DNA of 64,000 nt from Calonectria ilicicola. Lineage: Eukaryota; Ascomycota; Sordariomycetes; Hypocreales; Nectriaceae. Position numbers and translations under genes: made by a program. Every line of letters starts with the position of its first letter. Positions within the stretch are counted from its first letter, which is position 1. Positions 2 through 55,518 of this stretch are shown here, piece by piece. Below the pieces are notes generated by a model, which was not told where the DNA came from, did no database searches, and saw only the letters and a list, made by a program, of their open reading frames with translations. The stretch lies in NCBI GenBank assembly GCA_020809705.1, contig CP085835.1:2852001-2916000 (forward strand), written 5' to 3'.

Positions 2-3000
2 GCCGTGAGTGTATACACATCTGGTGGTAGCAGCAGCGGCAGCAGCAACGGTTCCGGCTCCTATGGTTCTGGCTCTGGCTCTTCAGAGTCAGGCTCAAAC
101 TCAGGCTCTGGTAGCGGCTCGGGATCAGGCTCCTATGGATCTGGCTCGTCTGGCTCTAGTGGTTCTAGTTCAGGATCTTCTGGATCATCAAGCTCTGGCT
201 CTAGCTCTGGCTCATACGGCTCTGGTTCCTCCTCAGGGTCTGGTTCCTCGGGCTCGTCTGGCTCCGGTAGCCATAGTGGCTCAGGTTCTGGCTCCGGTTC
301 TTATGGCTCGGGCTCGTCTGGTTCCGAATCCTCGGGCTCTGGCTCTTCTGGCGCAGGCTCTATTTCTGTTTCTGTCAGCCATACCATCTCCAGCTCTAGC
401 TCCAGTTACACCAGCTCCTATGGTTCTGGATCTGGTTCAGGCTCTGGCTCTGGCTCTGGCTCTGGCTCCTCTGGTTCCTCTGGATCTGGATCTGAATCAT
501 CAGGTTCTAGCTCAGGCCACTCAAGCTCGGGCTCAGGTTCAGGCTCTGGATCGTCAGGCTCTGAATCATCTGGCTCTGGCTCCTATGGCTCTGGCTCCTC
601 CGGTTCCTCTGGCTCCTCTGGAGCTGGATCTGAATCATCAGGTTCTGGTTCTGGCCACTCAAGCTCGGGCTCAGGTTCAGGCTCTGGATCTTACGGCTCT
701 GGCTCTGGGCACTCCGGCTCAGGCGCCTCTGGTGCTGTGACTGGTAGCGCGACCATTTCAAGCTCTGGATCTAGCTATACTGGCTCAGGCTCAGGCTCCC
801 ATGGCTCTGGTTCTTCAGGTTCAGGTTCAGGCTCCGGCTCCTACGGCTCCGGCTCCTCTGGCTCCTCTGGATCTGGTTCTGAATCATCAGGCTCTGGCTC
901 TGGGCACTCCGGCTCCGGCGCCTCTGGTTACGGCTCCTCTGGTGCTGTGACCGGTAGTGCGACTGTTTCAAGCTCCGGATCTAGCTCTACTGGCTCAGGC
1001 TCAGGCTCTCATGGCTCAGGTTCTTCAGGTTCAGGCTCCGGCTCTTATGGCTCTGGATCATCTGGATCTGGATCTGGCTCCGGTTCCTCCGGTTCCTCCG
1101 GTTCATCTGGCTCAGGCTCATCTAGCTCAGGATCCTCATCTTCTGGTAGCAGCGGCTCCGGATCAGGTTCTTATGGCTCTGGATCTTCTGGTTCTGGAGG
1201 CAACACAGGATCCGGCTCAGGCTCCTCTGGTGCTGTCTCTGCTAGCTATACCGTTTCAAGCTCTGGCTCTAGCCACACTGGCACTGGATCTAGCTCTGGC
1301 TCATCAGGTTCTGGATCTGGCTCATCTGGCTCGTCTGGATCGGGTTCTTCCGGTTCTGGTAGCAACACAGGCTCTGGCTCTGGATCCTATGGTTCAGGCT
1401 CTAACTCCGGTTCTTCTGGCTCCGGAAGTCACACCAGTTCGGGCTCTGGGTCTTCTGGTAGCAGCACAGGCTCTGGCTCTGGATCTTATGGTTCAGGCTC
1501 ATCTGGCTCAGGTTCTGGATCCTCCGGCGCTGTCACCGGTAGCCACACTGTGTCCAGCTCTGGCTCTAGCTCAACTGGCACCAGTTCGTCAGGCACTGGC
1601 AGTGGATCAGGCTCCTATGGCTCTGGATCGTCTGGTTCCGAATCCGGTAGCCACAGTGGCTCTGGCTCTGGCTCCTCTGGCCCCTCTGGCTCCTCTGGCT
1701 CTGGATCTGGATCTTCTGGCTCTGGTTCAGGCTCTTACGGCTCTGGCACTGGATCCTCTGGAGCTGTTACCGGTAGCCACACTGCCTGTAGCTCCGGTTC
1801 AAGCTCTACAGATACTGGATCTAGCAGTGGATCCGGATCCGGTTCTTACGGTTCTGGTTCCTCCTCGGGCTCAGGCTCCTCGGGCTCGTCTGGCTCTGGT
1901 AGCCACAGTGGCTCCGGCTCTGGATCTGGCTCTTCTGGCTCTAGCTCCGGTTCCTCAGGCTCTGGATCGTCAAGCTCTGGCTCTGGATCTTCCGGTGCTG
2001 CCACTGGTAGCCATACCGCCTCTAGCTCTGGCTCAAGCACTACAGGTACTGGATCTAGCAGTGGATCCGGATCTGGATCTTACGGTTCTGGTTCCTCAGG
2101 ATCATCTGGCTCTGGCAGCCACAGTGGCTCTGGTTCCGGTTCTAACTCTTCGGGTGCCGGCTCTTCTGGCTCTGGCTCTTCCGGCTCTGGATCGTCTGGT
2201 TCTGAATCATCTGGTTCTGGCTCAGGCTCTTATGGTTCAGGCTCAGGATCTTCTGGTGCAGTTACTGGTAGCCACACTGTTTCTAGTTCTGGCTCTGGCT
2301 CCACTGGTTCCGCCTCAGGTAGCTCCACTGGTTCTGGATCTTACGGTTCTGGTTCCTCGGGCTCTTCTGGCTCCAGCAGTCACAATGGTTCTAGTTCTAG
2401 CTCTAACAATTCTGGCTCTGGCTCATCAGGCTCTGGCTCAGGTTCCTATGGCTCCGGCTCCGGCTCAGGCTCTACAGGCACTAGCTCCGGTTCTGGATCT
2501 GGCTCTTATGGCTCTGGCTCGTCTGGCTCAGGTTCTTCTGGTTCTGGCACTCACACCGCCTCTGGCTCTAGCTCCAGCTCCACTGGTACTGGCTCTTCCA
2601 GCTCTGGCAGCAGTGGCTCTGGTTCATCTAGCTCCTCTAGCTCTGGAAGCAGCAGCGGAAACTGCGTGTCTAACGGTAACTTTGATACCGCGACTGGTAG
2701 CCACTATGGAACTGGCTGGACCTTTGGCGGAGACTGCGACGTCACTTCTTCTTCGAGCCTCCTGAGTGCCTTCACTGGTAGCCACTTCCTCGACATGTGC
2801 TACTCTAAGACTCTTGGTGCCCCCGTTGCTTATACCACGCTTACTGGCATTGAGGCTGGCAAGGCCTACAAGTTGAACTACTATGCCAGACTTGGACTCG
2901 ATGTTGCTTCACTTCTCAGCACCTGCAAGCTTGAAGTTACCGTTGGGGCTAAGGTGATTGACACCCTTGAACTCAAGGCGTCGCTCTCTTCTTGGGGTCT

Positions 3001-3151
3001 CCAGACCTCTGAGAGCTTCTCTCTGTCTGCTAGCACTGAGGCCCAGCTCAAGCTTAACTTGAGCTGCAACAGTGGTTGCTTCGGTGTACACGCCTACATC
3101 GACGATGTCGCTACTGTTGAGGTTGATGGAACTGCTTCAATCACCATTTAG
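2..3151 (+). CDS. Ser/Gly-repeat surface-type protein, 3' end only
   Basis: The frame is open from the window edge to a TAA-type stop near 3151 (TAG), so the true start and any signal peptide lie upstream. About 880 of 1,049 visible residues are Gly/Ser low complexity (SGSGS, YGSGS). Every 80-120 residues this is broken by a recurring non-GS cassette, roughly GAVTGSHTVSSSGSSSTGTG. The last ~160 residues (from about 2660) form a distinct domain starting near CVSNGNFD and containing six cysteines. It resembles a beta-sandwich carbohydrate-binding or adhesin tail (inference from composition and the NGxF start). No GPI-type hydrophobic tail is visible. A long flexible stalk ending in a compact disulphide domain suggests a cell-wall or secreted adhesin. 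No splice sites are needed across 3.1 kb. The family is not recognised by name. Confidence 0.85.
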   Translation, partial: AVSVYTSGGSSSGSSNGSGSYGSGSGSSESGSNSGSGSGSGSGSYGSGSSGSSGSSSGSSGSSSSGSSSGSYGSGSSSGSGSSGSSGSGSHSGSGSGSGSYGSGSSGSESSGSGSSGAGSISVSVSHTISSSSSSYTSSYGSGSGSGSGSGSGSGSSGSSGSGSESSGSSSGHSSSGSGSGSGSSGSESSGSGSYGSGSSGSSGSSGAGSESSGSGSGHSSSGSGSGSGSYGSGSGHSGSGASGAVTGSATISSSGSSYTGSGSGSHGSGSSGSGSGSGSYGSGSSGSSGSGSESSGSGSGHSGSGASGYGSSGAVTGSATVSSSGSSSTGSGSGSHGSGSSGSGSGSYGSGSSGSGSGSGSSGSSGSSGSGSSSSGSSSSGSSGSGSGSYGSGSSGSGGNTGSGSGSSGAVSASYTVSSSGSSHTGTGSSSGSSGSGSGSSGSSGSGSSGSGSNTGSGSGSYGSGSNSGSSGSGSHTSSGSGSSGSSTGSGSGSYGSGSSGSGSGSSGAVTGSHTVSSSGSSSTGTSSSGTGSGSGSYGSGSSGSESGSHSGSGSGSSGPSGSSGSGSGSSGSGSGSYGSGTGSSGAVTGSHTACSSGSSSTDTGSSSGSGSGSYGSGSSSGSGSSGSSGSGSHSGSGSGSGSSGSSSGSSGSGSSSSGSGSSGAATGSHTASSSGSSTTGTGSSSGSGSGSYGSGSSGSSGSGSHSGSGSGSNSSGAGSSGSGSSGSGSSGSESSGSGSGSYGSGSGSSGAVTGSHTVSSSGSGSTGSASGSSTGSGSYGSGSSGSSGSSSHNGSSSSSNNSGSGSSGSGSGSYGSGSGSGSTGTSSGSGSGSYGSGSSGSGSSGSGTHTASGSSSSSTGTGSSSSGSSGSGSSSSSSSGSSSGNCVSNGNFDTATGSHYGTGWTFGGDCDVTSSSSLLSAFTGSHFLDMCYSKTLGAPVAYTTLTGIEAGKAYKLNYYARLGLDVASLLSTCKLEVTVGAKVIDTLELKASLSSWGLQTSESFSLSASTEAQLKLNLSCNSGCFGVHAYIDDVATVEVDGTASITI
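340..2640 (+). repeat. Recurring cassette repeats inside the Gly/Ser gene
   Basis: Eight to nine degenerate copies of a cassette read as SGAV(T/S)(G/A)SxTxSSSGSSxTG, embedded in (GS)n. Copies begin near nucleotides 353, 728, 938, 1226, 1526, 1757, 1991 and 2258, with a decayed copy near 2550. Copies are more alike in protein than in DNA, because synonymous Gly and Ser codons vary freely. Confidence 0.75.
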
Positions 3152-16987: not shown

Positions 16988-19051
16988 CTAAATAAGACAA
17001 ATGTCTTCCACAGTGTTTTCCCACACTTCCCCATGCATAATACCATGCACATATGCATCACCTACAAATTCTGCAAAGCCATGTTCCATTGGTCGTATCA
17101 CCATAGGAACTTTAGCGCCAGCAAATAAGACAATTTCATCACCAGCCCTTGCAGTCCGGGGAACTAGGCCGATACAACCAAGAATGCTATCAGTAATGGC
17201 GAAACGACGCATCGCGGTGGAAACCAATATATCTGCAGTAGCCCTGAATATGTCCATTTTAGAAAACTCTGATCCCACAAGGAAGGTGTCGAGTTTTTCG
17301 AGGTTTGCTCTCGTTTTGGTTGCCCAGTCCCACCAAAACTGATATAGTCGCCGATGGGCATCCAGGTCTTGGACAATGACAGGTTTCTTCCCAAGGCTAG
17401 ATACAGAAGAGCAGAGAACTAGCCAAAAAGCATCGCTCATGGACTGTAGTGGGGTATCATCAGTCTCTATGAACCTGTCGGAGAAGATTGGGTTATTTCC
17501 GTCAGCGAGATGGACATTGTTGAATGTGCGATAGTATCGAGACCCAGGCGCGTCAATGCGAATCATCTTGCGCCATGATTCATATGCAGTGATGGCTGTC
17601 ATAATTTTATCCGTTCTTGCAACCTCACCTACCGCTGTAATTCTTCCAATAACATGACCCTTTAGCTTGAGACAGCTACTTCCAGGCCGGCTCAGATTAC
17701 AAACCGAGTCTCCGCACGTTCTATACAAATTTAATCGTTCAAAACGGCTTGCTGCATCATTAAAATCCTCGCTTGACCCATATGACCAGTCTGGTACCCA
17801 ACCCTGTGTACACATTCTCTCGCTCCCGTTGGTTTTTACAGAGCTCTCGTGAGCTAGGGCCAAACTCAAGACGTCTAACTCTCTCGAACTTCGAATAAAG
17901 GCTTTTGCAATCTCTTCGTATACAATCCCCACTGATTTTTGGTAGTCTGGAATGATTTGACCAAAGATCTCGTCATCTTTGACCAACCCAAGGATCCCAT
18001 AGACCTTATCCCGCGGATCTGAACACTCCCGTGTCCTGTATTCCAACACCAGTCTCAAAAGGTCAGTGTCTCGATAATTGTGGCGGTACCGATCCAGAAC
18101 GCAGAGGGTCAACATGGTTTCCATCAGGTCTTTGGGGCAGTGCGCGTGAAAGCTAATGCAGCAAGTATTGAGATGCTTAAAAAAGCTTCTGCTCACGCCG
18201 AATAAAGTCTCAGAATCCATATAATGGCTACCGCATAGAAATTTGAGGCTCTTGGGTAAGATGCTCTCTTGCAGTGTCCAGACTCTGTGCCACCATGCGC
18301 GCTTGAGTAATGAATGGATTGCGTCGAGAGATCCTTCGCCTAGAGATGTCTCAATCGTTGTGTCATTCCAATGATGTTCTGACAAGTCTGAGAGTTTTGA
18401 AAATGTCTCAAACCCACACCCGCTACCTTCTGTCTCCTCCCCGAGCCATGCTGTAACATTCGTCGCCATTTTGTACACGTCTCTCATCTGGCGAACCTGG
18501 TGGCCACGCTCTGAAAGATTGGACTGATCTATGGATATTGCATCAATCCAAATATTTCTTGTTCCATTTTCCTTTCGTAGTCGTCGTAGGGAGGCATAGA
18601 GGTTAGCCGTAACAGTGTGGACGTGCCCATTGACAGTGATCTGTGCGGTATTATCAGGCTCACCCCACACGTAGGAGAGGGCTTCGTAATTCGGGTTCTC
18701 AAGCAAAGAAACCGTATACAAAGTGCATATTATGGGGTCCTCGGGGCTGCCTTCTAACAGCCCAACCAGACGGATGTGTTTTTTATTAGGATCCAATGAG
18801 CGGTATAAAGGATAGTTTTGCGAATCTAGAGGATTGAGCCCAAGCTTCCCCAATTGAGCTGTCGGGCCCGTAGCTGAGCTCTCGGACTTGTCAGACGACA
18901 GGGGCGCTGGATATGCAGAGCGACGCTGGGGAATGTGCGCTGGTCTTTCAATCTCATGATTTTGTGGTTGTTGGTGGAATAGATTTGTGAATAGATTTGT
19001 GGTTGTTCCGTTAAGGGCATCTCTCCTCCGAGGTGTGGAAGGGCCAAACAT
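16988..19051 (-). CDS. HET-domain (heterokaryon incompatibility) protein
   Basis: A single exon of 687 residues. Three HET blocks are visible: YEALSYVWGEP (~residues 133-143), NIWIDAISIDQ with the following HQVRQMRDVY (~175-200), and later KVYGILGLV. The C-terminal part ends with GDAYVHGIMHGEVWE, the usual terminal motif of long HET proteins (GxAYVHGIMxGE). HET domains are TIR-related cell-death effectors that act in vegetative incompatibility and related immune-like responses. No NACHT or repeat domain is fused, so this is a stand-alone HET protein, probably cytosolic. The N-terminal ~80 residues are low in structure. It lies 22 kb from the NLR/kinase genes. Target and partner cannot be inferred. 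Confidence 0.92.
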   Translation of the reverse strand: MFGPSTPRRRDALNGTTTNLFTNLFHQQPQNHEIERPAHIPQRRSAYPAPLSSDKSESSATGPTAQLGKLGLNPLDSQNYPLYRSLDPNKKHIRLVGLLEGSPEDPIICTLYTVSLLENPNYEALSYVWGEPDNTAQITVNGHVHTVTANLYASLRRLRKENGTRNIWIDAISIDQSNLSERGHQVRQMRDVYKMATNVTAWLGEETEGSGCGFETFSKLSDLSEHHWNDTTIETSLGEGSLDAIHSLLKRAWWHRVWTLQESILPKSLKFLCGSHYMDSETLFGVSRSFFKHLNTCCISFHAHCPKDLMETMLTLCVLDRYRHNYRDTDLLRLVLEYRTRECSDPRDKVYGILGLVKDDEIFGQIIPDYQKSVGIVYEEIAKAFIRSSRELDVLSLALAHESSVKTNGSERMCTQGWVPDWSYGSSEDFNDAASRFERLNLYRTCGDSVCNLSRPGSSCLKLKGHVIGRITAVGEVARTDKIMTAITAYESWRKMIRIDAPGSRYYRTFNNVHLADGNNPIFSDRFIETDDTPLQSMSDAFWLVLCSSVSSLGKKPVIVQDLDAHRRLYQFWWDWATKTRANLEKLDTFLVGSEFSKMDIFRATADILVSTAMRRFAITDSILGCIGLVPRTARAGDEIVLFAGAKVPMVIRPMEHGFAEFVGDAYVHGIMHGEVWENTVEDICLI

Positions 19052-41981: not shown

Positions 41982-44900
41982 TTACTGAATAGCCCATTTC
42001 TCCCTTTCTTGGATCCTTTCTAGCTTCCAATTGCTCACAGCAAAAGCTTGGTGTTGCTCACCCAAGATCTGAGCTATTTTCTCACCCAATTCACGTTGAA
42101 TTCTCTCTGCTTCCTCCCAGCGCCCTTGAAACGTGTAGGTTTGAACCAGTCGACCGACAACACCTATCGTAGTCAAATCATCCTCTCCGACTAGACTCTT
42201 TGATATCTGCACGGCTTCTACCTCTGCTTCTTCGGCTCTGTCGACTTCGCCCCGCATCTTCCAAATGTTTGTCAAATGAGTCATGCTATTTACAGCAGCA
42301 AGACTATTTTTTGTAAACTTGCGTATATTTGCCTCGAGAACTTGAAGCGCAATATGTTCTGCTTCTTCAACGCGGTCTTGAGAAAGCATGAGTTGCGATT
42401 GATTTCGCATAATCGTCAGTGTTGTGGAATTCTCTTGTCCAAGAATTCTCAAACTTGCTTGCAATGCTTTTTCTCCTAATTCCTCAGCTTCTTTCCATTT
42501 CTCTTGTCTCATATATGTAGTGACCAGCGTTGCCATTGCCTCAATCGTAGCTGGATTATCTTGTCCCCGCACTCGTGTCATGATATCAATGACCTCCTCA
42601 AGTATCTCCATCGCCTTTGTAATTTCGCCCAAACTGTCGCATATCGTGGCCAATCTGCCCATACTGATCAGCGTGGTCAAGTGCTCCTTCCCTAGAACCC
42701 TGGAGCTGATCTCAATAACCTTAGTTTCTATCTCTGCTGCCTCGACATGTCTGAGCTGTTCATGGTATGCTGCTGCCAACATACTCATGCTAGTTAAGAC
42801 TTCAGGGTGTTCTTCCCCCAAAGCGCGCTTTTTTGTGTCAATTACTTTCAACCCTAGAGTTTCTGCGTCTTTCAACCGGCCTTGGCTATGGTATATGGCC
42901 ACGAGATTAGTCATATTTTTCAACGTATGGTAGTTTTCAGGTCCATGAACCAGATTAGACGCCTCAATAGCCCGGACGAGGAGTTCCTCGGCCTCTTCCC
43001 AACGATCTTCGTCTCTGTAAGTCAATGATAGATCGTTCATAGCCACTATAGTATCTGGGTGTTTTTGTCCCAAGAGCTGTTGTTTTATCTCCACCACTTG
43101 AACCTGAAGCTCTTCGGCTTTTTTGTATAGACCCTGTTCTCTGTAAATGGATGCCAGTGCCAACATGCTGTTCATTGTCATGTGATTTCGAACCCCTAGA
43201 GCAGCTTTGAGTCCACTGAAGGCGCGAGTGCCTTCTTCCTCCGCTTCCCGCAGCTTTCCCTGGTCTTTGTAAAATCTTGCTAGTAAGGTATGTGAGACCA
43301 GAGTAGTAGGGTGGCTACTCCCTAGGCTTGTGATATCCATCTGTATAATGTGTTTCTGTAATTTGACACAATTTTCCCATTGACCTTGATAACCGTGTGT
43401 CTTTGCCAAAAGGCTCATAGCTGCCAAGGTAGCCATGTGCTGCTCTCCCAGCTCTCTTGAGGTCATTTTTACTAATTCGGCTCCAGTTCTTTCAGCCTCA
43501 TCATGAAGTCCAAGCCCGTCGTTTGCCCCGACGAGACTTAACATACTGCCGAGTGTAACCGAGTGTGTCTCCCCCAGAACTTCTCTGCTAATATCAATTA
43601 CTTTCTCCGAAAGCTCTTTGCACTCCTTCCATTGCTGTTGATTCTGGTATACGAGTGCCAGAAACCCCATTGTGGTGAGTGTATCCCGGTGAAATTCACC
43701 CAGAGTCGCAATTCTGATTTCTAAGACTTGGTCTAATATGGTCTCAGTTTCTGCATATAATCCCAAGTCGAAAGAAAGATGAGCGACTTCAGTCATGAGC
43801 ATAGTCTTGACTCTCTCTGAGATTTCAGGTACTTTCTGCAAGTCCTCGATTTCTCGAAGCAGCCATTTTCTTTTTGTATCTGCCAGTTGCAAATCATTTT
43901 TTCCGATAGTCACTGCAGTTAAACTCCCTTCTTGTATCAGCATTGTAACTAGGCTGGGTAAAAGTTTACCACGCTCCTCTCGCTCTATTTCTGAAACCTT
44001 AACACGAATGTCATCCATGTCCAAAATAGTTTCATCCAAAATTTTCATCAACTCTGCTTCATTTCTTGGAGTACCGAACCCGATGTAATAGCAAATAGCT
44101 AGGTCCAATGCTAAAGGGGAATCGGGCCTGTATTTTCTTTGGAGGCATTCAAATATATGAATCCGGACTCGATAATCGCTGTTGTAGAACTCGCTCAGGG
44201 ATTTGCTCATCTGTTGCCAATAAATATCAGATTTCTTTTTTTCTGAATTTTATTAGATAACATACCGTAAACTCTTCGGCAGAAGACATGTACATCTCCT
44301 TTGACAGACTCTCATGTAGTATGTGACTATTCCCTCTGTTAGAATCTTTAGTACCGTGGGAACCAGTAACCTACTTTCGAGGGCGTAACCTTTGCACCAG
44401 GCCATCTAAACTTCCCTCACGATCTTCTCCATTAGGGCTAAGCGACGAGGTGAAGAATTCTATCAAGGCACTTTTTGTATCATCGTCGATGCTAAGCTCT
44501 ATTGCAAGTAATTCGGTAAGTATCTGTGAAAGAGATTCTGATGTGGACTTCAAAGCATTGAGCACGTTTATCTCTGTCATCATTGGTGTTTCACTGACAC
44601 AGAAAATTTGATTTACTCGGCTGTTGTCGAACATCGGCTGAAAAGTCTCCATTCCTATTACATACTCATAAAAGAGACACCAGAAGCACACCAGACCGAA
44701 CGAGAATGTGTCTACTCTCATGGCCTCTTGGCAGTTCCAGAGTCTCCCGCGTCGGTCATGTTCTTTTGGGTTCCAGGGACGCGAGATTGGTAATTGAATG
44801 TTGTGCGCATCATCAGTGAAGAGGGTTGAGTAGCCGAAATCTGTTATTTGTGCTTTGTATCCGACTTCTTTATCTTGGAAAATTAAAATATTTTCAGGCT

Positions 44901-45507
44901 TTATATCACCATGAATTATACCTAAGCCAAATAAGTTACCAGGCATGATTATTAGCTGGAATCGTGCGAACGAACCGTTCATGTGCATCTCCAGAATTGC
45001 GGTCCCAAAATCTAGACACAAAGACAATCGCTCACTGAAAGCTGTCTCTCGTGATGCTGGCAGTCCTAAAAAGTTTCGCAGGTCTCCAAATTGTGATTTC
45101 TCGAATATAAGGACTGGCCAAGGCCTCGCATCGTTTCGAGAAATATCCCAGCAAATTCCCTGAAGCTGGGCGAGATTTGGCAGTTCGCGTGTCTGAATAA
45201 GGGGATGACTCAATATATTAATTTCGTTAATCAGGGTACGAAAGATCTGGTCCTCTTCCCTACTCCGATCGACGACCTTAAAGGCAAAACTTGTGTGAAG
45301 GTTGATAAAGGACTCATTCACGCTGGACGTTGCACCCGAGCTGACATCCTGCCTCCCTGTATCCCATGATAAGGGAAAAAAGACAACATGAAGCTGTTGC
45401 GCTGTAGCTAAAAAAGACAGGAAATCGCAGTCTTGGTGGACGTCCTCTGGTTCGACAACACAAACCGCAGATGATGTTTGAAAGGATCTGTAAGACATGA
45501 CTGTCAT
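41982..45507 (-). CDS. Protein-kinase-like domain fused to a TPR array
   Basis: Four exons: 45507-44976, 44921-44375, 44335-44266 and 44210-41982. They close in frame to ~1,125 residues from the ATG at 45507 (45498 is an alternative). Residues ~30-375 are a kinase fold: K77 in SFAFKVV, catalytic loop HGDIKPEN (D183, K185, N188), and DFG at 205-207. The glycine loop is weak, and HGD replaces HRD. A linker is followed by ~15 tandem 42-residue kinesin-light-chain-type TPRs (LGxxHPxTLxxMxxLAxxYxxQGxxxEAE) from ~residue 500 to the end. Such TPR arrays are the usual sensor half of fungal NLRs, here joined to a kinase instead of NACHT/NB-ARC. It lies immediately downstream of the PNP-NACHT-ankyrin gene on the same strand. 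A cytosolic signalling role is inferred; activity is uncertain. Confidence 0.85.
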
Positions 45508-46413
45508 AAGTGTTGCGCACGGTGACGAATTTGGAGCGATATGCTTGAACAAAGTGTTGACTCAAGGGCACGAAGACTTTCAAATATTTGGAGCAAGTGA
45601 AAGTTGACAGAAAATTCGTGACAAAAGACACAGACTGCTTGTCTAACGCCGAAGAGCTACGTACACCACAAATATTGGATTCAGGTTCCCTTATGTTTCA
45701 TGGCGATCCTTACATGCATTTATGTGCCTCTACCTTCTAAATAGCTCAAGCATAACTAATTCGCGCATCCATCCGCACCTTGCAGCGCCAATGTGGCAGT
45801 GTAAGCCACTCATGCAGCCTGGTTGTACCTTGTAATTCCACGTAGCAACTTTTACACCGCCACGTCAGAATGTGATGAACTGCATGCATCGAAACTATTT
45901 GATACTTAAAACCTCTTTCAGGACTAGTATCAAATTCGCCATGCATTCGCGTGACCCTGTGCACTAGCGCCAGGAAAGGCTATTTTGCCTGTACAGGTCA
46001 ACTTCTGTAACGGTTATATTCATTCATTTATTTTCGGAAGATGTTTGGCTTCACATTTCTAATTAATTCAAGCATTGATTGGCCTTCGAAGCATACATTT
46101 ATCAAGGTATTGAAGTTTGTGTTGGATCTGCCGTTAGCCAAGACATGCTGAAAACTATAGGTATCTGGACTGAGTGAGCTTGGGTTATGCGGGTGTCAGA
46201 TGAAACCTCAAAAGATCTGTAGTGTAGATATAGAGCGTTATTTGTTATGTTTGTATAATAAGAATACAGAGCTTAATATATACTCTAAATAATATTCGAA
46301 GATACATCTCATCATTTAATTATAATAAAAGAATTTAAAATTCAAAATTAATTATTAATAATTAAGAAACTTTTTAAATATTAAATCTGAATAAATTATG
46401 AAATAAATAATAC
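45508..46413. other. Intergenic region with an AT-rich block
   Basis: The promoter of the kinase-TPR gene and the 3' flank of the NLR. From 46241 to about 46420 the DNA is extremely AT-rich (ATTAATTATTAATAATTAAG-like). No gene is seen. Confidence 0.55.
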
Positions 46414-49250
46414 TCAACGTAAACCATAAGACTCAAGCAGTTTTAATATGCCTTGGTGCCCGCCCTCTATCGCCCATGCCATCGGCGGACGACCGTCTTC
46501 ATCTCTCGAGTGTGGGCTTGCTCCCGTATCCAGAAGAAGCCTGGCAACCGCCTCGTTTCCGAAACTTGCGGCATAGGACAGTGGTGTCCTTCGGACCTTG
46601 CTTTTAGAATCCATTAAAGCACCTTTCTGGATCAGTTCACGCGCCACCCTCGTGTGGCCGTACTGGGCGGCCCATGACAATGGCGTCCGCCCCCGACCGT
46701 CTCTGCATTCCAAATCGACATCCTTCTGGAGCAAGCGCTGCATAACCACCAGATCTCCGTACTCGGCTGCCCACATTAGTAGCTCGTCGTACTGCCAGTA
46801 TTTAGCTTGACTCCCCATGTCCTTCTGAAGGAGTCGATCCAGAAGGTCAATATACCCGTACTTCGCGGCCATCAGCAGCTGAAGCCGATGGTATTCTACA
46901 CCGCTAGCACTCGAGTTGGCACCCTTCTCTAGCAGCAGTCTTACAGTGCTCCCGTGATCTCTTTGATCCGCATAACTTATAGGAGTATCGGATGGCTTGC
47001 TCTTGCTGGTGATATCCGCACCGCTGTCGAGAAGCCACTGGACAACCTCATCGTATCCACCGAGCGAGGCCCAGAATAGGGCAGTGTGGCCGCGCTCGTC
47101 CGATGGCTCCGTATCGGCGCCTGCTTTGAGCAATTGTGAAGTGAGAGCGGCGTCCCCGTTCTGTGCTGCCCGGAATAGCGGTGTCAGACCATCCAGAGCC
47201 TTCGACTCGGTGCCGACGCCCTTAGAGAGCAGGAGCGTAACGATGTCCTGATGCTCATACTTCGCAGCCAGTGCCAGTTGAAATTGGCTATATTCGGCAT
47301 CTCGGATTGGCAGCTCCGCAGCCTTCTCTAGTAGCAACCTGATCGTGGTGTTGTAGCCCTCCTGCTCGTCTCTCGGCATCGGAGGACGGTATATATCTTT
47401 GTATTGGTCAAGACTATACAGAGCCCATGACAGCGGGGTTCGGCCGCATTGTGTGTCTTTTATTTCCACGTCGGAGCCTCTGGTGAGTAGGTAACGCACA
47501 ACCGATGCCTTGCCCTCTCGTGCAGCCCACGAAAGCGGTGTTCGTCCCTGCGAGTCCTTGGAATCGAAGTCGACGCCCTTTTTATGCAGCAGACGAACGA
47601 TGGCCTCGTGGCCCTTCTCTGCGGCATAGGATAACGATGTTCGACCTTCATCGTCCGTAGCGCTCGGGTCAGTGGATCTGTCCAGGAGCAAGTGAAGTAC
47701 CGCTTCGTGGCCAAGCTCTGCAGCAAGCGACAAGAGATTCTGTCCTCGGTACGTCTTCAGACTTGAATCAGCACCCATCTCGAGTAGTATCATGGCTACA
47801 GCTTCGTTCTTGTAGAGAATGGCATAAAACAAAGGCGTCCAGGACTGATTGCTCCCCTTGGCATCTACCCTAGCACCGCTTTCAATAAGTTGCCGCACAA
47901 CGGCATTGCTTGCGGTCTCGGCCGCCCGGGAGAGTGGTGTCCGGCCACTGGTGTCCATGTAGTTTATATCTGCACCATTCTTGATCAGCAGTCTTACTAC
48001 TGTCTCATTCCTTGTTTGGACGGCGTGACACAGCGGTGTCCAGTCAAAATTGTCTTTCCACTCCGCGTCGACGCCATTCTCGAGCAGGGACTCCACCACC
48101 GCAGTGTAGCCGTACTTGATAGCCAGAATGAGCTGTCGTCGATAAAACTTCGTGCTCTCGGACTTCCACTCGGGAGCCTTTTCTAACAGCTGCCTTACGA
48201 TGCCCTGTTCCCTCGCCTTTTCGGCTTGATCAATTGGATACCACCCGTACTCTTTGTCGGCGATGTCAATGCCGGCACCCCCCTGAAGCAACTCTCGAAC
48301 GACTTCATCGCATCCCTTCTCCGCAGCATATGAGAGCGCTGGCCGACCGTAAAGGCTGTCTATGGAGTTCACCTTAGCACCCTTCCCAAGTAGCAGCTTG
48401 ACTGTCGTGACGTGACCCTCCTCGGCAGCCCATGATAGCGCCGTCTTGCCCCACATGACTGAGGATTCCAGGTCGGCACCCGCCTCCAGCAGCGTTTCGA
48501 CGGTCGCGTCGTATCCATTTCTCGCGGCCTCGATCAGCGGCGTTCCGCGACCTACCCGCGATTCCACGTCGACGCCGTGTTCGAGTAGAAGCTTTACGGC
48601 GGCTGTGTGCCCCTCTCCCGCGGCGACCTGCAGTGGTGTCTCGTCGAACCTGCCTTTTTGCTCCAGGTCGACGCCGCCGGCTAGCAGCCGCTTCAGCACG
48701 GCCGTGAGCCCGTACTTCGAGGCTAGGAAGAGCTCTCGTGTTTCGTATCCAGGATCTTTGCACTGCGGAAAACCGCCGCCCCTAAAGAGTTCCCGGATGA
48801 CGTTTTCGCGGTTGTAATCGATAGCATGCCAGAGTGGCGTCCGGCCTTCCTTGTCCGTAGAGTAAAGGTTGGCGCCTTTATCGAGAAGTGTCCTGGTTAC
48901 ATCTCCTCCCCAGTTGTGCACCGCCCAAGCTAGCGGCGTCTTACCAGACAAGTCTTGGGATTCCAACTCGGCGCCGTTCTCCAAGAGCAGCGTCACGACG
49001 GAATTATTTGCGTTTCCTGCAGCCCATGACAGCGGTGTCCTACCGTCTTTGTCCGCCGACTCTAGGTTGGCACCGCCTTCCACGAGCAGTCTGGAGGTCG
49101 CTTCTCTCCCCCAGCCTGCAGCCCATGAGAGCGGCGTCCGATGGCTTTTGTCATTGGACTCAATCATGGCTGATTTCTCTAACAACAGGGTTACGACTCG
49201 TACATTACCGCTTTGTACAGCCCACGATAGAGGCGTCCGACCATCCCTGT

Positions 49251-49258
49251 CTCTGGAT
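49251..49258. repeat. Target-site duplication, left copy
   Basis: CTCTGGAT immediately left of the transposon. The identical octamer lies immediately right of it at 52127-52134. It sits within an ankyrin-repeat codon run. Confidence 0.85.
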
Positions 49259-49313
49259 GAGATTTGATATTCGTAGTTACAGCTATTGATATTCGTAGTA
49301 ACAACGTCACGTG
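49259..49313. repeat. MULE left terminal inverted repeat
   Basis: 55 bp beginning GAGATTTGATATTCGTAGTT. It contains two direct copies of GATATTCGTAGT, 21 bp apart, that may be paired transposase-binding sites. Confidence 0.9.
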
Positions 49314-49506
49314 GGGCCCAAAATTTCTCCCCGATCGCATTTTCCTTCCTTCTTTTCTTTCCTCCACAGCCAATTTGTTAGTAAATTAAAGCATGTGCCA
49401 AATCGCACCCCAAGTCATTAAAAAACAGCCCAATTGACAGAAAAAAATCGATTTCTATTAAAATGAATATATTGAACAGCTAGCCGGGCAACAGCCCGGC
49501 CCCAAT

Positions 49507-51954
49507 TTACTCTGTTGCAGCCGTAATACAGTCCCCTGACTCTGCCGTGATATTTGAGCTGTTCCTTAAGGACGTGCCTCCCGCCCGGCCTCCACGACCT
49601 CGTCGGGACCTCGTTTGCATTCCCGTTGTATTTGTGTGTGCATTTAATCTTCTCAGAGACGCCGCTCGAGTGCGCGGTGGGCTCTTGGGTGCGGCTTTCA
49701 TCTCAAGCTCTGACTGTGAGAGCAATCGCCGGGCGCTTGGCTTCAAAGCTGGTCGCGTGCGGCGGGGGCTTGGCTTCGCAATAGGCCTCGAGGCCGGGGT
49801 CGGGGTCACAGTTGAGGTTTGGCTTAAGGTCGGGGTCATCGTGAGGTCTCGTTCCTTAGGGTCAAGGGCTTGAAGCTGCTTGGGCACCTTCAGCTTGTTA
49901 TTCACAGCCTTCCGCGGCCGGCCGCGAAGGTTCTGTACGATATCGGGGTCGCGGATACGAAGGAGCGGTTCCTCGAGGTCCTGTTGGTAGAAGTTAGTGG
50001 GTTTTCAGGCCAAAAAAGGCAAAATCCCTACCAAGGGCTTCCTAAACCACCACCGAGGGTGGCAAAGCTCCTTCGTGAGGGGCCGATTTTCCTTCAAACG
50101 CAGCAGAATTTGGTGGCTGCAAGGCAGAGCATATTGTTGAGTGAATGAGCCCTTGCAGGGGCGTAAGGTTGGATTTTCTGCATCGGCCCTGACGGCAGCA
50201 TCAACATAGCGGTGTTGCGCAGCAATAAGGTCGACGGCAACGTAGGATATTTGTAAGGGAAGCTCACCAAGCCATTCCCTGCCGATGTATTCAACGCGCT
50301 GCCTCATCTTCTCAATAGCTGCTCGTTGTATGTAGTCGCGTTCCTTCTTCTTCAGCATAGCCGTGAGCGCGCTGTGGAGGTGCAAAAGGTCGCCTGTGCC
50401 TGTGAGGAGGAAGCTTTTCACATCCTTATGAGCAGTCTCTGTTGGGCTATTGACCCGCTGGCCGAAGTTGCGATAGAGGCGAATAAAGCAATGTGCCCAT
50501 TGTACCCTCCAGGGCATATATTCCTTCGAGATGTATTTCAGGATGTGGTTTTGGTGCTTTCCATAGGCAAAAAGCATTGCCCCCCATCGCGCCTCAAAAT
50601 CTGCCTCCTCGTCTGCGTAAACAACGCGTTTCCACGCCTCATACATGCCAAGAGGAGAATAATCAATCGGAATAGGCTTCTTTTTGGCCGGCCTAAGAAG
50701 AGTCGCATTCTCCAGTTGTGCCTCTGCTTCCTCTGCCTCCGCCTGGGCTGCCTCACGAGCGCGCTTTGTAAATGCCTCGTTTTGGACCTCATCGCTCTCG
50801 TCATCGCTGATTTCATCGTCTTCGGGAGCATGGGGGTCGTGCCAGCGGGAGAAAATCTTGCTCCTGACGTTGGCGTTGATGTGATAAATGCATAGCTGTT
50901 GCTGGGCATGCGGAAAGGTCTCCAAGAGGGCGTTTTTGAGCGCTGTTTCTTTGTCGGTGAGGATCACGGAAGGAGGCGGAATGCGGAGCGATATTTGCAT
51001 AAAGCTGAGCTGTTGGCAGAGCCAAGAAAAGCCCTCTTCTCGTTCGTTGCTGATGAGGCCAAAGCCAAAATTGACGACCGACTTTTGATCTGTGATGCCT
51101 GTGACCTGGAAGAGATACATATTAAACCGGTTAGTTTTATATGTATTATCAAGTCCCAGAACTTCTGGAAATCGCTTCCACATCTGCTCACACCAAGGAT
51201 AAGTCCAAAATAATGCCTCCACCTTGTTATTCTCACCATAGCGAACCACATGCCGAACTTTCTCTCGTTGAAGGTGGTGTATCCACGCCTGGGTGGCTGT
51301 GAAGCCGTTGAGGCTCTCTCGGCGCAGTCTTTGGCGATCATTATAGATGTCTCGAGCAAGAAAATAAGAAGGCCCTGCCTTAATTCTCCTTAAGCTATCG
51401 CCAACTTCACGCGGGGGGTTCGTTGGATTCTCATGAAACTGCAGTCGGTGCTCCCTTTGTTGCCCAGCAGTTCGCTTTCGATGCGTTGGATGTGCCGCTG
51501 GGTTTTCAGAAGCTTCATGATTATGATAATCTTCAGCTACATAATAAGTCCAGAATCCATTTGCCTGTTGTGATGTTTTGGCGATGATTTTGAAAGGGCA
51601 GTTGGTTTTATTGCTGGAGACCTTCCGTATTCCTTGGCCACTGTTAAAATAAGCCCCCCCACGGTCGCAACCCAGTGTATAATATGTATTAATTAATGCG
51701 CCATTTACCATTCTTTTGGGGCCAGATCCCCTTTTTATGATCGCAGCGCCGTTGCGGCGATAAAATGATTGAAGGAAGAAAAAAAGCTCCTCGAAGGAGT
51801 GGAATTCCGGCGACAGGGGCGCATTTGGGATTATTGGCGTTTCTTCAAAAAATTCCACCCCATCGTCGTCAGGATTGAAGGAAATTTGTTGTGCGGTATC
51901 TGGAAGCCGTGGATAATCATGAAAATCGTTAAAATCGAATTCTGAGTCGCTCAT
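49507..51954 (-). CDS. MULE transposase
   Basis: Two exons (51954-50032 and 49980-49507; 50-nt intron) give 798 residues from MSDSEFDFND. The N-terminal FAR1-type zinc-binding region is seen as a cysteine-initiated GGAYFN segment, then NCPFKI, then HNH. The MULE catalytic core starts with GLDNTYKTNRFN (first Asp) and continues with VILTDKETALKNAL (second Asp); the CxxH-type CIYHINANV follows. The catalytic Glu lies further on, and I could not fix it with certainty. An AT-hook RGRPRKA sits just after the intron, followed by a Ser/Pro/Arg-rich disordered tail ending in a second basic patch (RSRRGRGGR). The frame has no stops or shifts, so the protein is probably active. A further in-frame GTG upstream reaches into the inverted repeat and is not used here. 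Confidence 0.9.
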
Positions 51955-52071
51955 GTTGTCGCAAAAGTCATTAGTTAAGGAGGAAGTTATTTGGTAGATG
52001 AAAAGTCTGAGTTGGGTTGTGGGGTCATCGCGGGCGCGGCGATTTCGGCGGAATAATATTGTTCCGACTTG

Positions 52072-52126
52072 CACGTGACGTTGTTACTACGAATATCAAT
52101 AGCTGTAACTACGAATATCAAATCTC
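52072..52126. repeat. MULE right terminal inverted repeat
   Basis: Exact reverse complement of 49259-49313 over all 55 bp. The disrupted NLR frame runs through it and stops inside the element at 51987. Confidence 0.9.
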
Positions 52127-52134
52127 CTCTGGAT
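52127..52134. repeat. Target-site duplication, right copy
   Basis: CTCTGGAT, identical to 49251-49258. Collapsing the two copies joins ...DLESR to DRDGRTPL in frame, an ordinary ankyrin-repeat boundary. Confidence 0.85.
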
Positions 52135-55100
52135 TCCAGATCGATGCCCTCTTCCAGTAGTAGGATGTTTACTACCGTATCGTGTTCCTTCATTGCTGCA
52201 AAAGATAGCGCTGTTTGACCATCCCTGTCCTTCGCATTGGTAGCTGCACCTTCCTTGAGCAGTCGCGTAATCACGGCATCGTGCCCATTCTCTGACGCAT
52301 ACGATAGCGGTGTTCGGCCTTTTTTGCTACTGGAATCGAAATCAGACCCTCTTTGGAGTAATACTTCAGCCACTTTGTCGTTCCCATTCTGGGCGGCGTG
52401 AGAAAGGGCCGTCTGTCCCTCCTTATCCTTAGCTTCGGCATTGGCACCGGCTTCGAGTAACATACTGACAACCTCATCGTGTCCATTTAGTGCAGCCCAG
52501 GCCACCGGCGTTCGACCGTATGTGTCGCGCGGATCCAGACCAAGTCCCTGGCTCTGTCCCAAGCTGAGAAGCGCCTTCACCGTTTCACGAATCCCAAAGT
52601 ATGCCGCAAAGTGCAGCGGCGTCATGAGTCTCGGGATCCTTTGGCTATAGCCTACCCACGACGTCATCTTTAGGTCGACGAGCAGCGGTTGGCTCGAGGC
52701 CTCCAGCTTCCTTTTACGTTCTAAAAAATCGGTGAGGCCCGGCAGCAGAGTTCCAACCTTGCGAGCGTGATGACCCCAGTTATTTGCTGCGTAGTTATAG
52801 AGCGGGTTCGACCGGAGCCGCTCTCGAAACTCTCCATCTTCGCGGCAGATCCCAGTGTCAAAGACGTCGAAGGATAAGTAGTGGATGCAGAAATTTGTGA
52901 CTTTCGCCTCCGCGCCTGAAAACCATTCCTCTTTTGACCGTTCAAAGTACTCCTGGGTCGTGTAGTGGACGAGACGAATAATGCTGCTTGCCTCGTCCAC
53001 AGTTACAAGCCCAGCACATACCGAAACCATATCCTCGACCTGAGGAAGGTTTTGGTGATCCAGCTCACGGATGTCAGCCTCCAGCTCCAGAGCGAGTGCA
53101 TGTCGAAGCTCCTCCGTAGCCAGAGGCCTCTGAGCACATGTAATCCAAGTCAAGACGTTCTCGGCAAGCCTCCGGAAACCCTCTTTCTGTCCTTGAATCC
53201 TTTCCATCGCGTTCCTGTAAGCCCGGTCCAGTATTTCGCGCTTTTGCCCCTCGCTCGATCCCGGCGTCTGCTTTCGAAACTGCATCACCGCTTTCCGCAC
53301 CTCCTTCGGCGTAATCTTGTCGTCGAGGGAGCTGAGGTAGATCTGTGCCAAGAGAAACCTTGAAGCTCGTTAGCATTGACGCCTCAGCACATGTAGAGAG
53401 TTGGACCACGAACATTCCATCCACCGCGTTTGCGATCCCGGTTGCAATCTCTGATCTCAGGTCTTCATCCTTCCTGACAAAGGAGGGTAGTCTTCCCATA
53501 TAGCCTTCTACGTACTTTTCAATGTCGCCTTCGCTCGCCCGGATCTCCAGTGACACATTCTCCGGGAACATGTTGGTGATATCGGGGATGAATCTGGAAG
53601 TGGCAAAGACACTTAATTGGCAGGCGGCTTGGAGCTCGAAGACCGTCGACAAAACCCTTGTTCGGCCGTCCTCATCGGGCTGGCATTCATCAAGGGCATC
53701 AATGACGACGAAAACTTTAGAGTAATGCGAGGCGGCAGACCCAAAAGCCTCGAATAGTTCTCTGACGGAAGGCCGTGTACGTCTATTCTTGTGGCTGCTG
53801 TAGAGAGTCTTCACATTCTCTGGTATCGCAGGCAGGTCTTGAAGGAGTTGCTTCAGCAAACTCGCGAGGAGATGCTCGACGTCCTGCTGGTATTGTCTCC
53901 GAAAGTTGCAGTAGAAGTATACGGTGCTGGTGCTGGCGTTCGTATGAGACCAGGTAGTGAGGTGCTCAATCACAATGGATGTGAGAATTGTCTTTCCGCC
54001 CCCGGGAATTCCTGGGCAGAACAAGGTCTGGCCTTTGCCCTTCGACCACGCTTCGAATTCTCTCGAGGTGAGAAGCCACTGCCCCGTTCCTGGCTGTCGT
54101 TTTTTGACATGATCGCTCTGCTCCGGGCCGTAGTCTGCCAGAGTGAGCCAGTCCATCAATTCTTTAGCGTCCATCGCTATCTCTCGTCAGAAAAGATGCA
54201 AGTAACAGGGCACATTGTCAGGGGAATCTATGGGCCGAGTAGATTTCACACAGAATGAAAGATCATCATATTAGGCAAAACCAAATATGGAACAATATTC
54301 CCGGCCATGATTTCATCTCACATCTAAACTTCAAATAGCGTACCTCCTTTGTTGTCCGTCGTGATCTTCTTTAAGTCTTTTATGTCGCTGCCAATCACAT
54401 TCATCTCGGTCTCGACTGTGACCATCCGTAGTTAGTCAGCGTATGTTTGTCGGAGCAGGATCGGTTGTTTTTCCATAGTACTTACGCTTCGCCATCGTTT
54501 CTTTCATGCTCTTTGTCTCCTCCATGTCCTCGCCGTATACTTTGAGAAGGATAGCCTTGCTATAGGCCGCAGCGACGGCAGCGGCATAGTTATGCCACCC
54601 ATCCTGCTTGTGTGTGTCGGCATAGTCGCATATGCCTCGGACTACCAGGCAAGGGATCTCATCCATGATGCCAGCAGCTTCCATTTCAAAGCACATCGCC
54701 TCATTATGGCCCCTCTGGAGGCGGTCCCGATCTTCTGGATTCTTAACGACGCCTCCACCCGAGAGGATCAGCCCACGGTGAACAACGGGGAGTTTGGGGT
54801 TGTCACGTTCGGCACGGGCCAGAGTCTGCCTATCCCCAGATGCCTCGCATCCGCTACAGTCGTGGCCCTTATTGACGTGCCGAAAGTCTCTGACGAAAAG
54901 AACATCGCCATTATGAGGTCGTGCGTAGCCGGGCTTCTTGGTGATAATCCTGAGTATCCTCTTTAACGGACTCCGGCCCATCAGTTCGTCATCCTCCAAG
55001 GCGCCGTTCGCACTTATCAAGATGGGAGGAGGCTTGTCGAGCGACCCCTTCAAAACAAACTTCCCATCTGACTCGTACTTGCCGAAATCATACTCAATCA

Positions 55101-55518
55101 CTCCCGGATGACCGTCTCGAGGGATGCTAACTACGACGTCCCCGAGGCGGATGTCGCGATTGGGCAACTCGGGAATGCCAGCGCCGATACCAGTCATAAG
55201 AGCGAAGCGGACATTGGGGAACTGCTGGCAGACGGTCGCAGCGCACTGAGCGGCTTTCACGGTTCCCATCTGATGCGGTCGTGCGATGACGATCTTGTGG
55301 TCTCCAATCCGCCCGAAAGAGTAGACATATTTTCTGGGACCTATTGCTTTCGCACGGCATTCGAATTCTTCGTCTAGGCTGTACTTTACTGCAACTGATT
55401 CATACGAGAGGGCACAGAATATCGCCACGGTGATTTCTTCAGGGCGGATTTCCTTGAACCTCTCCCATTCAGACTCTTCGTCCGTGCTTTCTGCTTGGGC
55501 TTTGGCAACAGTCTGCAT

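What the first reader, a model, noticed from the sequence alone, without database searches (positions are those of the whole stretch)
49259..52126. Young MULE insertion splits a PNP-NACHT-ankyrin NLR
A complete 2,868-bp element with 55-bp perfect inverted repeats and an identical 8-bp duplication (CTCTGGAT) lies inside the ankyrin region of a ~2,000-residue NLR. Removing the element and one octamer restores the ankyrin frame exactly; leaving both octamers would shift the frame by 8. The host frame is otherwise undamaged and the transposase is open. The insertion is therefore recent and may be polymorphic between strains, switching a recognition specificity on or off.
Basis: partly seen in the sequence, partly recalled or inferred. 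Interest (0 to 1): 0.85.

Follow-up and report, generated by a model that had tools for sequence, protein, structure and literature searches.

The report
Jumping gene broke a fungal immune receptor
In this fungus a complete Mutator-type jumping gene has landed inside an otherwise intact-looking immune-receptor gene and cut it short; the event is real and probably fairly recent, but it is a kind of event already known from another fungus, and nothing here shows that it works as an on/off switch.

Summary
A 2,868-bp element at 49259-52126 has perfect 55-bp inverted repeats and an exact 8-bp duplication. It encodes a predicted 798-aa MULE transposase with an intact D-D-E triad. It sits in the ankyrin array of a PNP-NACHT-ankyrin NLR of about 1,980 residues. 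Counting one octamer gives an open ankyrin frame; counting both does not. The other frame breaks fit short introns. The gene as it stands would encode a ~1,080-aa protein with about 5 of ~33 ankyrin repeats and a 46-aa element tail.

One other near-identical copy was found (0.53% different); it is split by a 40.7-kb inversion on contig C12 and has a stop at codon 22. Frame integrity bounds the insertion to about 0.6-1.2% neutral divergence: recent, but polymorphism is untested. 'Switching specificity' is not supported, although precise MULE excision would in principle restore the frame. Ankyrin units average 31% identity, unlike fast-changing sensors. Podospora nwd2, an NLR inactivated by a transposon in het-s isolates, is a direct precedent. 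New member of a known kind.

The parts
49259..52126 (-). Complete MULE (2,868 bp), apparently autonomous; orientation by its transposase
49259..49313 (+). Terminal inverted repeat, 55 bp, perfect; contains two related direct repeats (TTGATATTCGTAGT..) 22 bp apart
   Evidence: repeat unit read by eye; one search shows that one end of the C12 copy lacks 22 bp here
52072..52126 (-). Terminal inverted repeat, 55 bp, perfect
49251..49258 (.). Target-site duplication CTCTGGAT, copy 1
52127..52134 (.). Target-site duplication CTCTGGAT, copy 2
50032..51954 (-). Transposase exon 1 (PF10551 MULE, E 1.5e-32; D269, D334, E506)
49981..50031 (-). Predicted 51-bp transposase intron (GTAGGG...CTAAC...CAG)
   Evidence: prediction, no RNA
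49507..49980 (-). Transposase exon 2, including stop 49507-49509
54486..55518 (-). NLR exon 1: PNP_UDP_1 domain (E 3e-14)
54344..54415 (-). NLR exon 2 (linker)
53414..54182 (-). NLR exon 3: NACHT/NPHP3_N, GIPGGGKT and VFVVIDALDEC present; start 54182 or 54176 (or later) by acceptor choice
52135..53358 (-). NLR exon 4 upstream of the insertion: winged-helix domain (PF22939) and about 5 ankyrin repeats
51987..52126 (-). Element sequence read in the NLR frame: 46-aa tail, stop 51987-51989
46414..49258 (-). Severed NLR 3' part: 945 codons (about 28 ankyrin repeats by length), open, natural stop; first in-frame ATG at 49167

Best explanation
An autonomous-looking cut-and-paste Mutator-like element inserted, with an 8-bp staggered cut, into the ankyrin-coding exon of a functional-looking PNP-NACHT-ankyrin NLR of a nectriaceous fungus. 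Shown from sequence: complete element, duplication, transposase motifs, open host exons on both sides, loss of frame. Inferred: the NLR now makes at most a ~1,080-aa protein that keeps the PNP effector, NACHT and winged-helix domains but only about 5 of ~33 sensor repeats, so it has lost ligand recognition, most likely as a plain loss of function. Inferred: the insertion is recent on an evolutionary scale, and the host tolerates it because it carries a very large NLR repertoire.
For: Perfect TIRs/TSD and the frame test; Pfam domains of element and host; introns that repair the other frame breaks; catalytic D269 in 12 of 12, D334 in 10 of 10 ungapped (2 of 12 gapped) and E506 in 12 of 12 aligned transposases. 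An NLR paralogue on C5 (52% identical over the upstream part, the highest identity among the long matches) has a 1,773-codon open frame that runs past the equivalent position. One other near-identical copy was found: 15 substitutions in 2,812 compared sites, 0.53%, 95% CI 0.30-0.88%, 8 of 12 coding changes synonymous (P 0.006-0.012), as expected for a family kept active. The 945 severed codons hold no stop: 95% upper bound 0.56-1.2% neutral divergence. RIP index of the element is -0.84, against -0.62 for the whole window and +0.71 in an old relative on C10. NLR-type NACHT domains are abundant: 150 of 150 scored PF24883 candidates matched, of 406 candidates.
Against: No RNA, no second isolate, no ortholog. 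Introns are predicted. The age bound assumes an indel rate and neutrality, and still allows hundreds of thousands of years or more (recalled mutation rates). Selection could be keeping parts of either half open. Perfect 55-bp TIRs alone bound TIR-TIR divergence only below about 5.5%. PF24883 also matches in 9 of 14 control genomes (5 over the cut-off), so the count of 150 is of NACHT-like domains, not of proven NLRs.
Confidence: 0.9

Rival explanations
1. The insertion is a reversible, polymorphic switch: the element excises precisely (element plus one octamer) at appreciable frequency, returning a working NLR, and populations carry both states.
For: Frame arithmetic is exactly that of precise excision; MULE Muta1 with 8-bp donor TSDs gave about 90% precise excisions in yeast (PMC5225508, passages); the transposase looks intact.
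Against: No second strain or empty allele seen; the yeast result is for a mosquito element; only one intact copy was found, which argues against high current activity; the sensor units are not of the fast-changing class.
Confidence: 0.12
2. The truncated NLR is retained as a new functional protein (sensor-less PNP-NACHT regulator or decoy), and/or the severed ankyrin part is expressed on its own from its ATG at 49167: gene fission by transposon.
For: Both parts are open; first ATG of the 3' part at 49167.
Against: Openness is equally explained by recency; no promoter or expression evidence was sought or seen.
Confidence: 0.07
3. The NLR was already dead before insertion and the element landed in a pseudogene.
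For: Cannot be excluded by frame alone, because young pseudogenes stay open.
Against: All predicted exons open, GT-AG introns, GIPGGGKT and VFVVIDALDEC intact.
Confidence: 0.06
4. Assembly artefact or chimeric join.
For: None seen.
Against: Exact TSD and exact TIR ends; an artefact would hardly make an 8-bp duplication whose single copy restores the frame.
Confidence: 0.01

Closest known systems
Podospora anserina nwd2 (NLR) inactivated by the REPA element in het-s isolates (PMC3321046, passages)
   Same: A fungal NLR broken by a transposon; there the state differs between wild het-s and het-S isolates
   Different: Other transposon (REPA), other NLR architecture (N-terminal HET-s motif; NACHT and WD repeats recalled), linked to het-S; polymorphism here untested
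VdMULE1-3 of Verticillium dahliae (PMC3441728, passages)
   Same: Fungal MULEs with a single transposase gene, 53-86-bp TIRs, sub-terminal direct repeats, one copy each in the table; an 8-bp TSD on one of the three
   Different: 3.4-3.6 kb against 2.87 kb; single exon there, one predicted intron here; termini GGNAA there, GAGAT here; a family member's protein (VDAG_04851 = VdMULE8, P0037) is 38-41% identical
Hop1 of Fusarium oxysporum
   Same: Active fungal MULE (named as active in passages of PMC3441728 and PMC5225508)
   Different: Shares GGNAA termini with VdMULEs, not met here; its own sequence was not compared
MULE transposase proteins of Fusarium solani (P0001) and F. oxysporum f. sp. 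narcissi (P0019)
   Same: Most identical of the named proteins in the search, same domains
   Different: 60% over 67% and 62% over 56% of the query; 62% and 66% in the alignment

Membership tests
Mutator-like element (MULE) superfamily | Transposase with MULE (PF10551) domain | tested here: met
   E 1.5e-32, 112.4 bits against cut-off 27.6, full profile 1-99
Mutator-like element (MULE) superfamily | DDE triad | tested here: met
   D269, D334, E506 aligned with 11 relatives; assignment of these as the triad rests on the motifs as recalled
Mutator-like element (MULE) superfamily | 8-11-bp target-site duplication (range from PMC6446971, passage) | tested here: met
   8 bp; also TACTAAGT on the C12 copy and ATTCATAA on the C4 element
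Mutator-like element (MULE) superfamily | Terminal inverted repeats | tested here: met
   55 of 55 bp
Hop1/VdMULE subgroup | Terminal consensus GGNAA (PMC3441728, passage) | tested here: not met
   Element begins GAGAT; not filed in this subgroup
Hop1/VdMULE subgroup | Phylogenetic placement of transposase | not tested
   No tree built; only pairwise identities
Fungal NLR (PNP-NACHT-ankyrin) | N-terminal effector, NACHT, C-terminal repeats (PMC12258605, passages) | tested here: met
   PF01048, PF24883/PF05729, PF22939, ankyrin families
NLR with high internal conservation repeats | Repeat units over 80% identical (PMC12222747, passage) | tested here: not met
   17 units picked by motif, of about 33 by length: mean 31.5%, max 51.5%; no tandem array at TRF score 40
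Heterokaryon incompatibility (het) gene | Allelic non-self recognition phenotype | not testable with these tools
   Needs crosses or barrage tests

The most novel reading that the evidence does not exclude
The only intact copy found of this MULE sits in a core-contig NLR, while the other four stop-free MULE domains of 13 found lie on C12, a small contig with telomere repeats that is about tenfold enriched in transposase domains, as expected of an accessory chromosome. The boldest reading not excluded: transposons arriving with an accessory chromosome spread into the core and disarm NLRs of the kind that police foreign cytoplasm, reversibly, since precise MULE excision would restore the frame.
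Probability: 0.07. Interest if true: 0.75.

Novelty: new member of a known kind. Interest (0 to 1): 0.3.

Why it matters
It is a clean example of a transposon removing one receptor from a fungal NLR repertoire, with an intact element and an exact empty-site prediction, so presence/absence can be tested by one PCR across isolates. If polymorphic it would be another case like Podospora nwd2 and would show that NLR repertoires turn over partly by transposition. The C12 pattern gives a testable source for the element.

Tried and rejected
Considered that the NLR had other frameshifts (frame breaks near 53.4, 54.2 and 54.4 kb): rejected, because short GT-AG introns repair each one; introns 1 and 3 also hold a CTAAC, intron 2 only CTGAC/CTAAT-like sites. 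Considered a 7- or 9-bp duplication: rejected by the flanks. Looked for an orthologous empty site among proteins of up to about 2,090 aa: 6,788 of 7,991 scored candidates matched, as ankyrin proteins; of the 120 listed the top row has 42% identity and the highest is 45%, so no ortholog was seen. Looked for a near-identical intact NLR paralogue in the genome: best 52% over the upstream part (101 of 1,003 candidates scored). Looked in the plasmid collection: no match, as expected. Tested for RIP between the two element copies: few RIP-type changes (read by eye: 4 in the C12 copy, 1 in the window copy), not heavy RIP. hAT domains do not share the C12 openness pattern (rows: 4 of 7 open on C12, 14 of 27 elsewhere, p 1.0; one search had been given 13 of 27 by a miscount, also p 1.0), which weakens the accessory-chromosome reading; the core also holds 14 of 62 stop-free DDE_1 matches. 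Family controls: PF10551 matches in 3 of 14 control genomes, PF24883 in 9 of 14. A literature search for nucleoside phosphorylase domains as ATP nucleosidases in fungal NLRs gave nothing usable; that link is recalled only and not used.

One search failed on a wrong frame and was repeated correctly. The upstream NLR piece was in a wrong frame and was redone. In one search the first two listed differences of copy A (positions 22, 25) come from aligning across the 22-bp TIR deletion, and the two at 1578 and 1586 of copy B lie at the inversion junction; these four, the gaps, and the first 55 bases were left out of the count of 15.

Full report
Observation. The element at 49259-52126 is real and complete. 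It is 2,868 bp long with perfect inverted repeats of exactly 55 bp and identical 8-bp direct flanks CTCTGGAT. In an in-script empty site, keeping one octamer gives one frame without a stop through the ankyrin array; keeping both gives 13, 22 and 15 stops in the three frames. The spacing of the ankyrin motif is 32-33 residues before the join, 34 across it, and mostly 32-34 or multiples after it, so the register is also kept.

The element. Its minus strand encodes a predicted 798-aa transposase: ATG at 51954, a 51-bp intron 50031-49981, stop at 49507-49509. Exon 1 carries PF10551 (E 1.5e-32) and a ZSWIM RNase-H-like match. In an alignment of 12 transposases (the window protein and 11 chosen from the 54 hits), D269 and E506 are present in 12 of 12 and D334 in 10 of 10 ungapped rows. 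The most identical named proteins are 60-62% identical over 56-67% of the query (Fusarium,995 candidates scored), so no near-identical transposase was found. Each inverted repeat holds two related direct repeats 22 bp apart (read by eye), similar in kind to the sub-terminal repeats of VdMULEs (PMC3441728, passages). The termini (GAGAT) do not fit the GGNAA consensus of Hop1/VdMULEs, so it is filed in the MULE superfamily but not in that subgroup.

The host gene. It lies on the minus strand: PNP_UDP_1, then NPHP3_N/NACHT, a winged-helix domain, and ankyrin repeats. Three predicted introns explain the other frame breaks; for the second, four acceptors keep the frame. Motifs GIPGGGKT and VFVVIDALDEC are present (calling them Walker A and B is recalled knowledge). 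Without the element the protein would be about 1,980 residues (1,035 + 945 with the first acceptor). With it the frame ends at 51987-51989 after 1,065-1,081 residues, including 46 from the element. By length, about 5 ankyrin repeats lie before and about 28 after the insertion. A paralogue on C5 (49-52% identical over the upstream part) has a 1,773-codon open frame that runs through the equivalent position.

The organism. The Tsr1 protein of this genome (69.9 Mb, 12 contigs) is 88% identical to Thelonectria olida and to an unnamed JGI protein, 86% to Neonectria magnoliae, and 85% to an Ilyonectria and two Fusarium species (120 of 1,848 matches listed). It is thus a nectriaceous fungus whose species I cannot name.

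Other copies. DNA search of the genome (counts are lower bounds) gave one other near-identical copy, on C12, in two pieces: 756037-757597 (minus; element bases 28-1588, plus the repeat end after a 22-bp deletion) and 715377-716669 (plus; bases 1573-2868). Both outer flanks carry the same octamer TACTAAGT in element orientation, so it was one insertion later split by an inversion of about 40.7 kb (inference). The other breakpoint lies in a Tc1/mariner-type transposase gene: the sequence abutting one piece encodes HTH_Tnp_Tc5, that abutting the other encodes DDE_1 from profile position 54 on. The C12 copy also has a stop at transposase codon 22. Hence the window copy is the only intact one found. 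More distant relatives are a C9 element (66% and 76% over two aligned stretches, with stops), a strongly AT-rich, RIP-like C10 relative (GC 18%, composite RIP index +0.71), and a 513-bp non-autonomous element on C4 with its own 8-bp duplication.

Age. Leaving out the first 55 bases and the inversion junction, the copies differ at 15 of 2,812 sites, 0.53% (95% CI 0.30-0.88%). This dates the two copies' common ancestor, not this insertion. Of 12 coding differences 8 are synonymous and one of the other four is the stop (expected synonymous share 28-31%, P 0.006-0.012), which fits a family evolving under constraint. For the insertion itself, the severed 945 codons hold no stop or frameshift. If neutral since insertion, the 95% upper bound on divergence is 0.56-1.2%, for assumed indel rates of 0.15-0.05 per substitution. 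The perfect repeats alone only bound divergence between the two TIRs below about 5.5%. So 'recent' is fair, but 'polymorphic' does not follow.

Mechanism. Best reading: one-step loss of the sensor by MULE insertion. In yeast, mosquito Muta1 with 8-bp donor duplications left about 90% precise sites, losing the element and one octamer (PMC5225508, passages), and that is exactly the event that would restore this frame. The switch is therefore possible in principle. Against it stand the single intact copy and the absence of any empty allele in the data at hand. Also, the ankyrin units are diverged (17 units, mean 31.5% identity, maximum 51.5%; no tandem array found), unlike the over 80% identical WD40 units of Podospora HNWD sensors (PMC12222747, passages).

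Context. The genome is rich in NACHT-type domains (150 of 150 scored NPHP3_N candidates matched, 406 candidates in all; the family also matches in 9 of 14 control genomes), so loss of one NLR may be buffered (inference). MULE domains: 13 matches from 14 candidates; within the matched domain 4 of 4 on C12 are stop-free, and 1 of 9 elsewhere is, namely this one (Fisher p 0.007). One of the four on C12 is the split copy with the stop at codon 22, so stop-free domain does not mean intact element. C12 is 1.9% of the genome but holds 4 of 13 MULE, 17 of 79 DDE_1 and 7 of 34 hAT matches, against 4 of 150 NPHP3_N matches. DDE_1 is stop-free in 10 of 17 on C12 and 14 of 62 elsewhere (p 0.007). Telomere repeats were found at the start of C12 (and of C4, C6 and C7); none were found at the far end of any contig. 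This suggests, without proving it, an accessory chromosome and possible source. Against a simple story, hAT domains show no such openness contrast (4 of 7 against 14 of 27, p 1.0).

Comparison. Podospora nwd2, an NLR gene, is inactivated by a transposon in all wild het-s isolates analysed (PMC3321046, passages). A TE cluster also replaces a five-gene stretch of the het-v region in one strain (PMC9262711, passages). So the kind of event is known; the particular element and gene are new instances. Interest is modest.

Noticed in passing
L010 (C12:715377) and L009 (C12:756037): A 40.7-kb inversion on C12 has one breakpoint in the second MULE copy and the other in a Tc1/mariner-type (HTH_Tnp_Tc5 + DDE_1) transposase gene; both elements are cut in two, with the same TSD TACTAAGT on the two MULE pieces.
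   Followed up: partly
G000:C12 (1.36 Mb): Contig about tenfold or more enriched in MULE, DDE_1 and hAT domains, with stop-free MULE and DDE_1 domains and telomere repeats at its start: candidate accessory chromosome.
   Followed up: partly
L012:1138-1650 (C4:927637-928149): 513-bp non-autonomous element with related inverted repeats and 8-bp duplication ATTCATAA; a 65% relative on C7:1751294-1751696 and a lone similar end on C12:846257-846307.
   Followed up: partly
window 41982-45561 (-): A protein-kinase-like frame (44371-45561) followed closely by a long TPR frame (41982-44249) on the same strand, just downstream of the NLR; possibly one kinase-TPR gene.
   Followed up: no
window 16988-19051 (-): HET-domain (PF06985) gene about 27 kb from the NLR's 3' end.
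   Followed up: no
window 5-3151 (+): Open frame of 1,048 codons with no Pfam match at E 0.001.
   Followed up: no
L035 (C10:4219797-4221545): Old MULE relative with GC 18% and 51 stops in the matched stretch, a strong RIP-like signature in this genome.
   Followed up: partly
window 51952-51989: The truncated NLR frame ends 32 bases before the transposase ATG on the same strand, so a read-through transcript would carry both frames.
   Followed up: no
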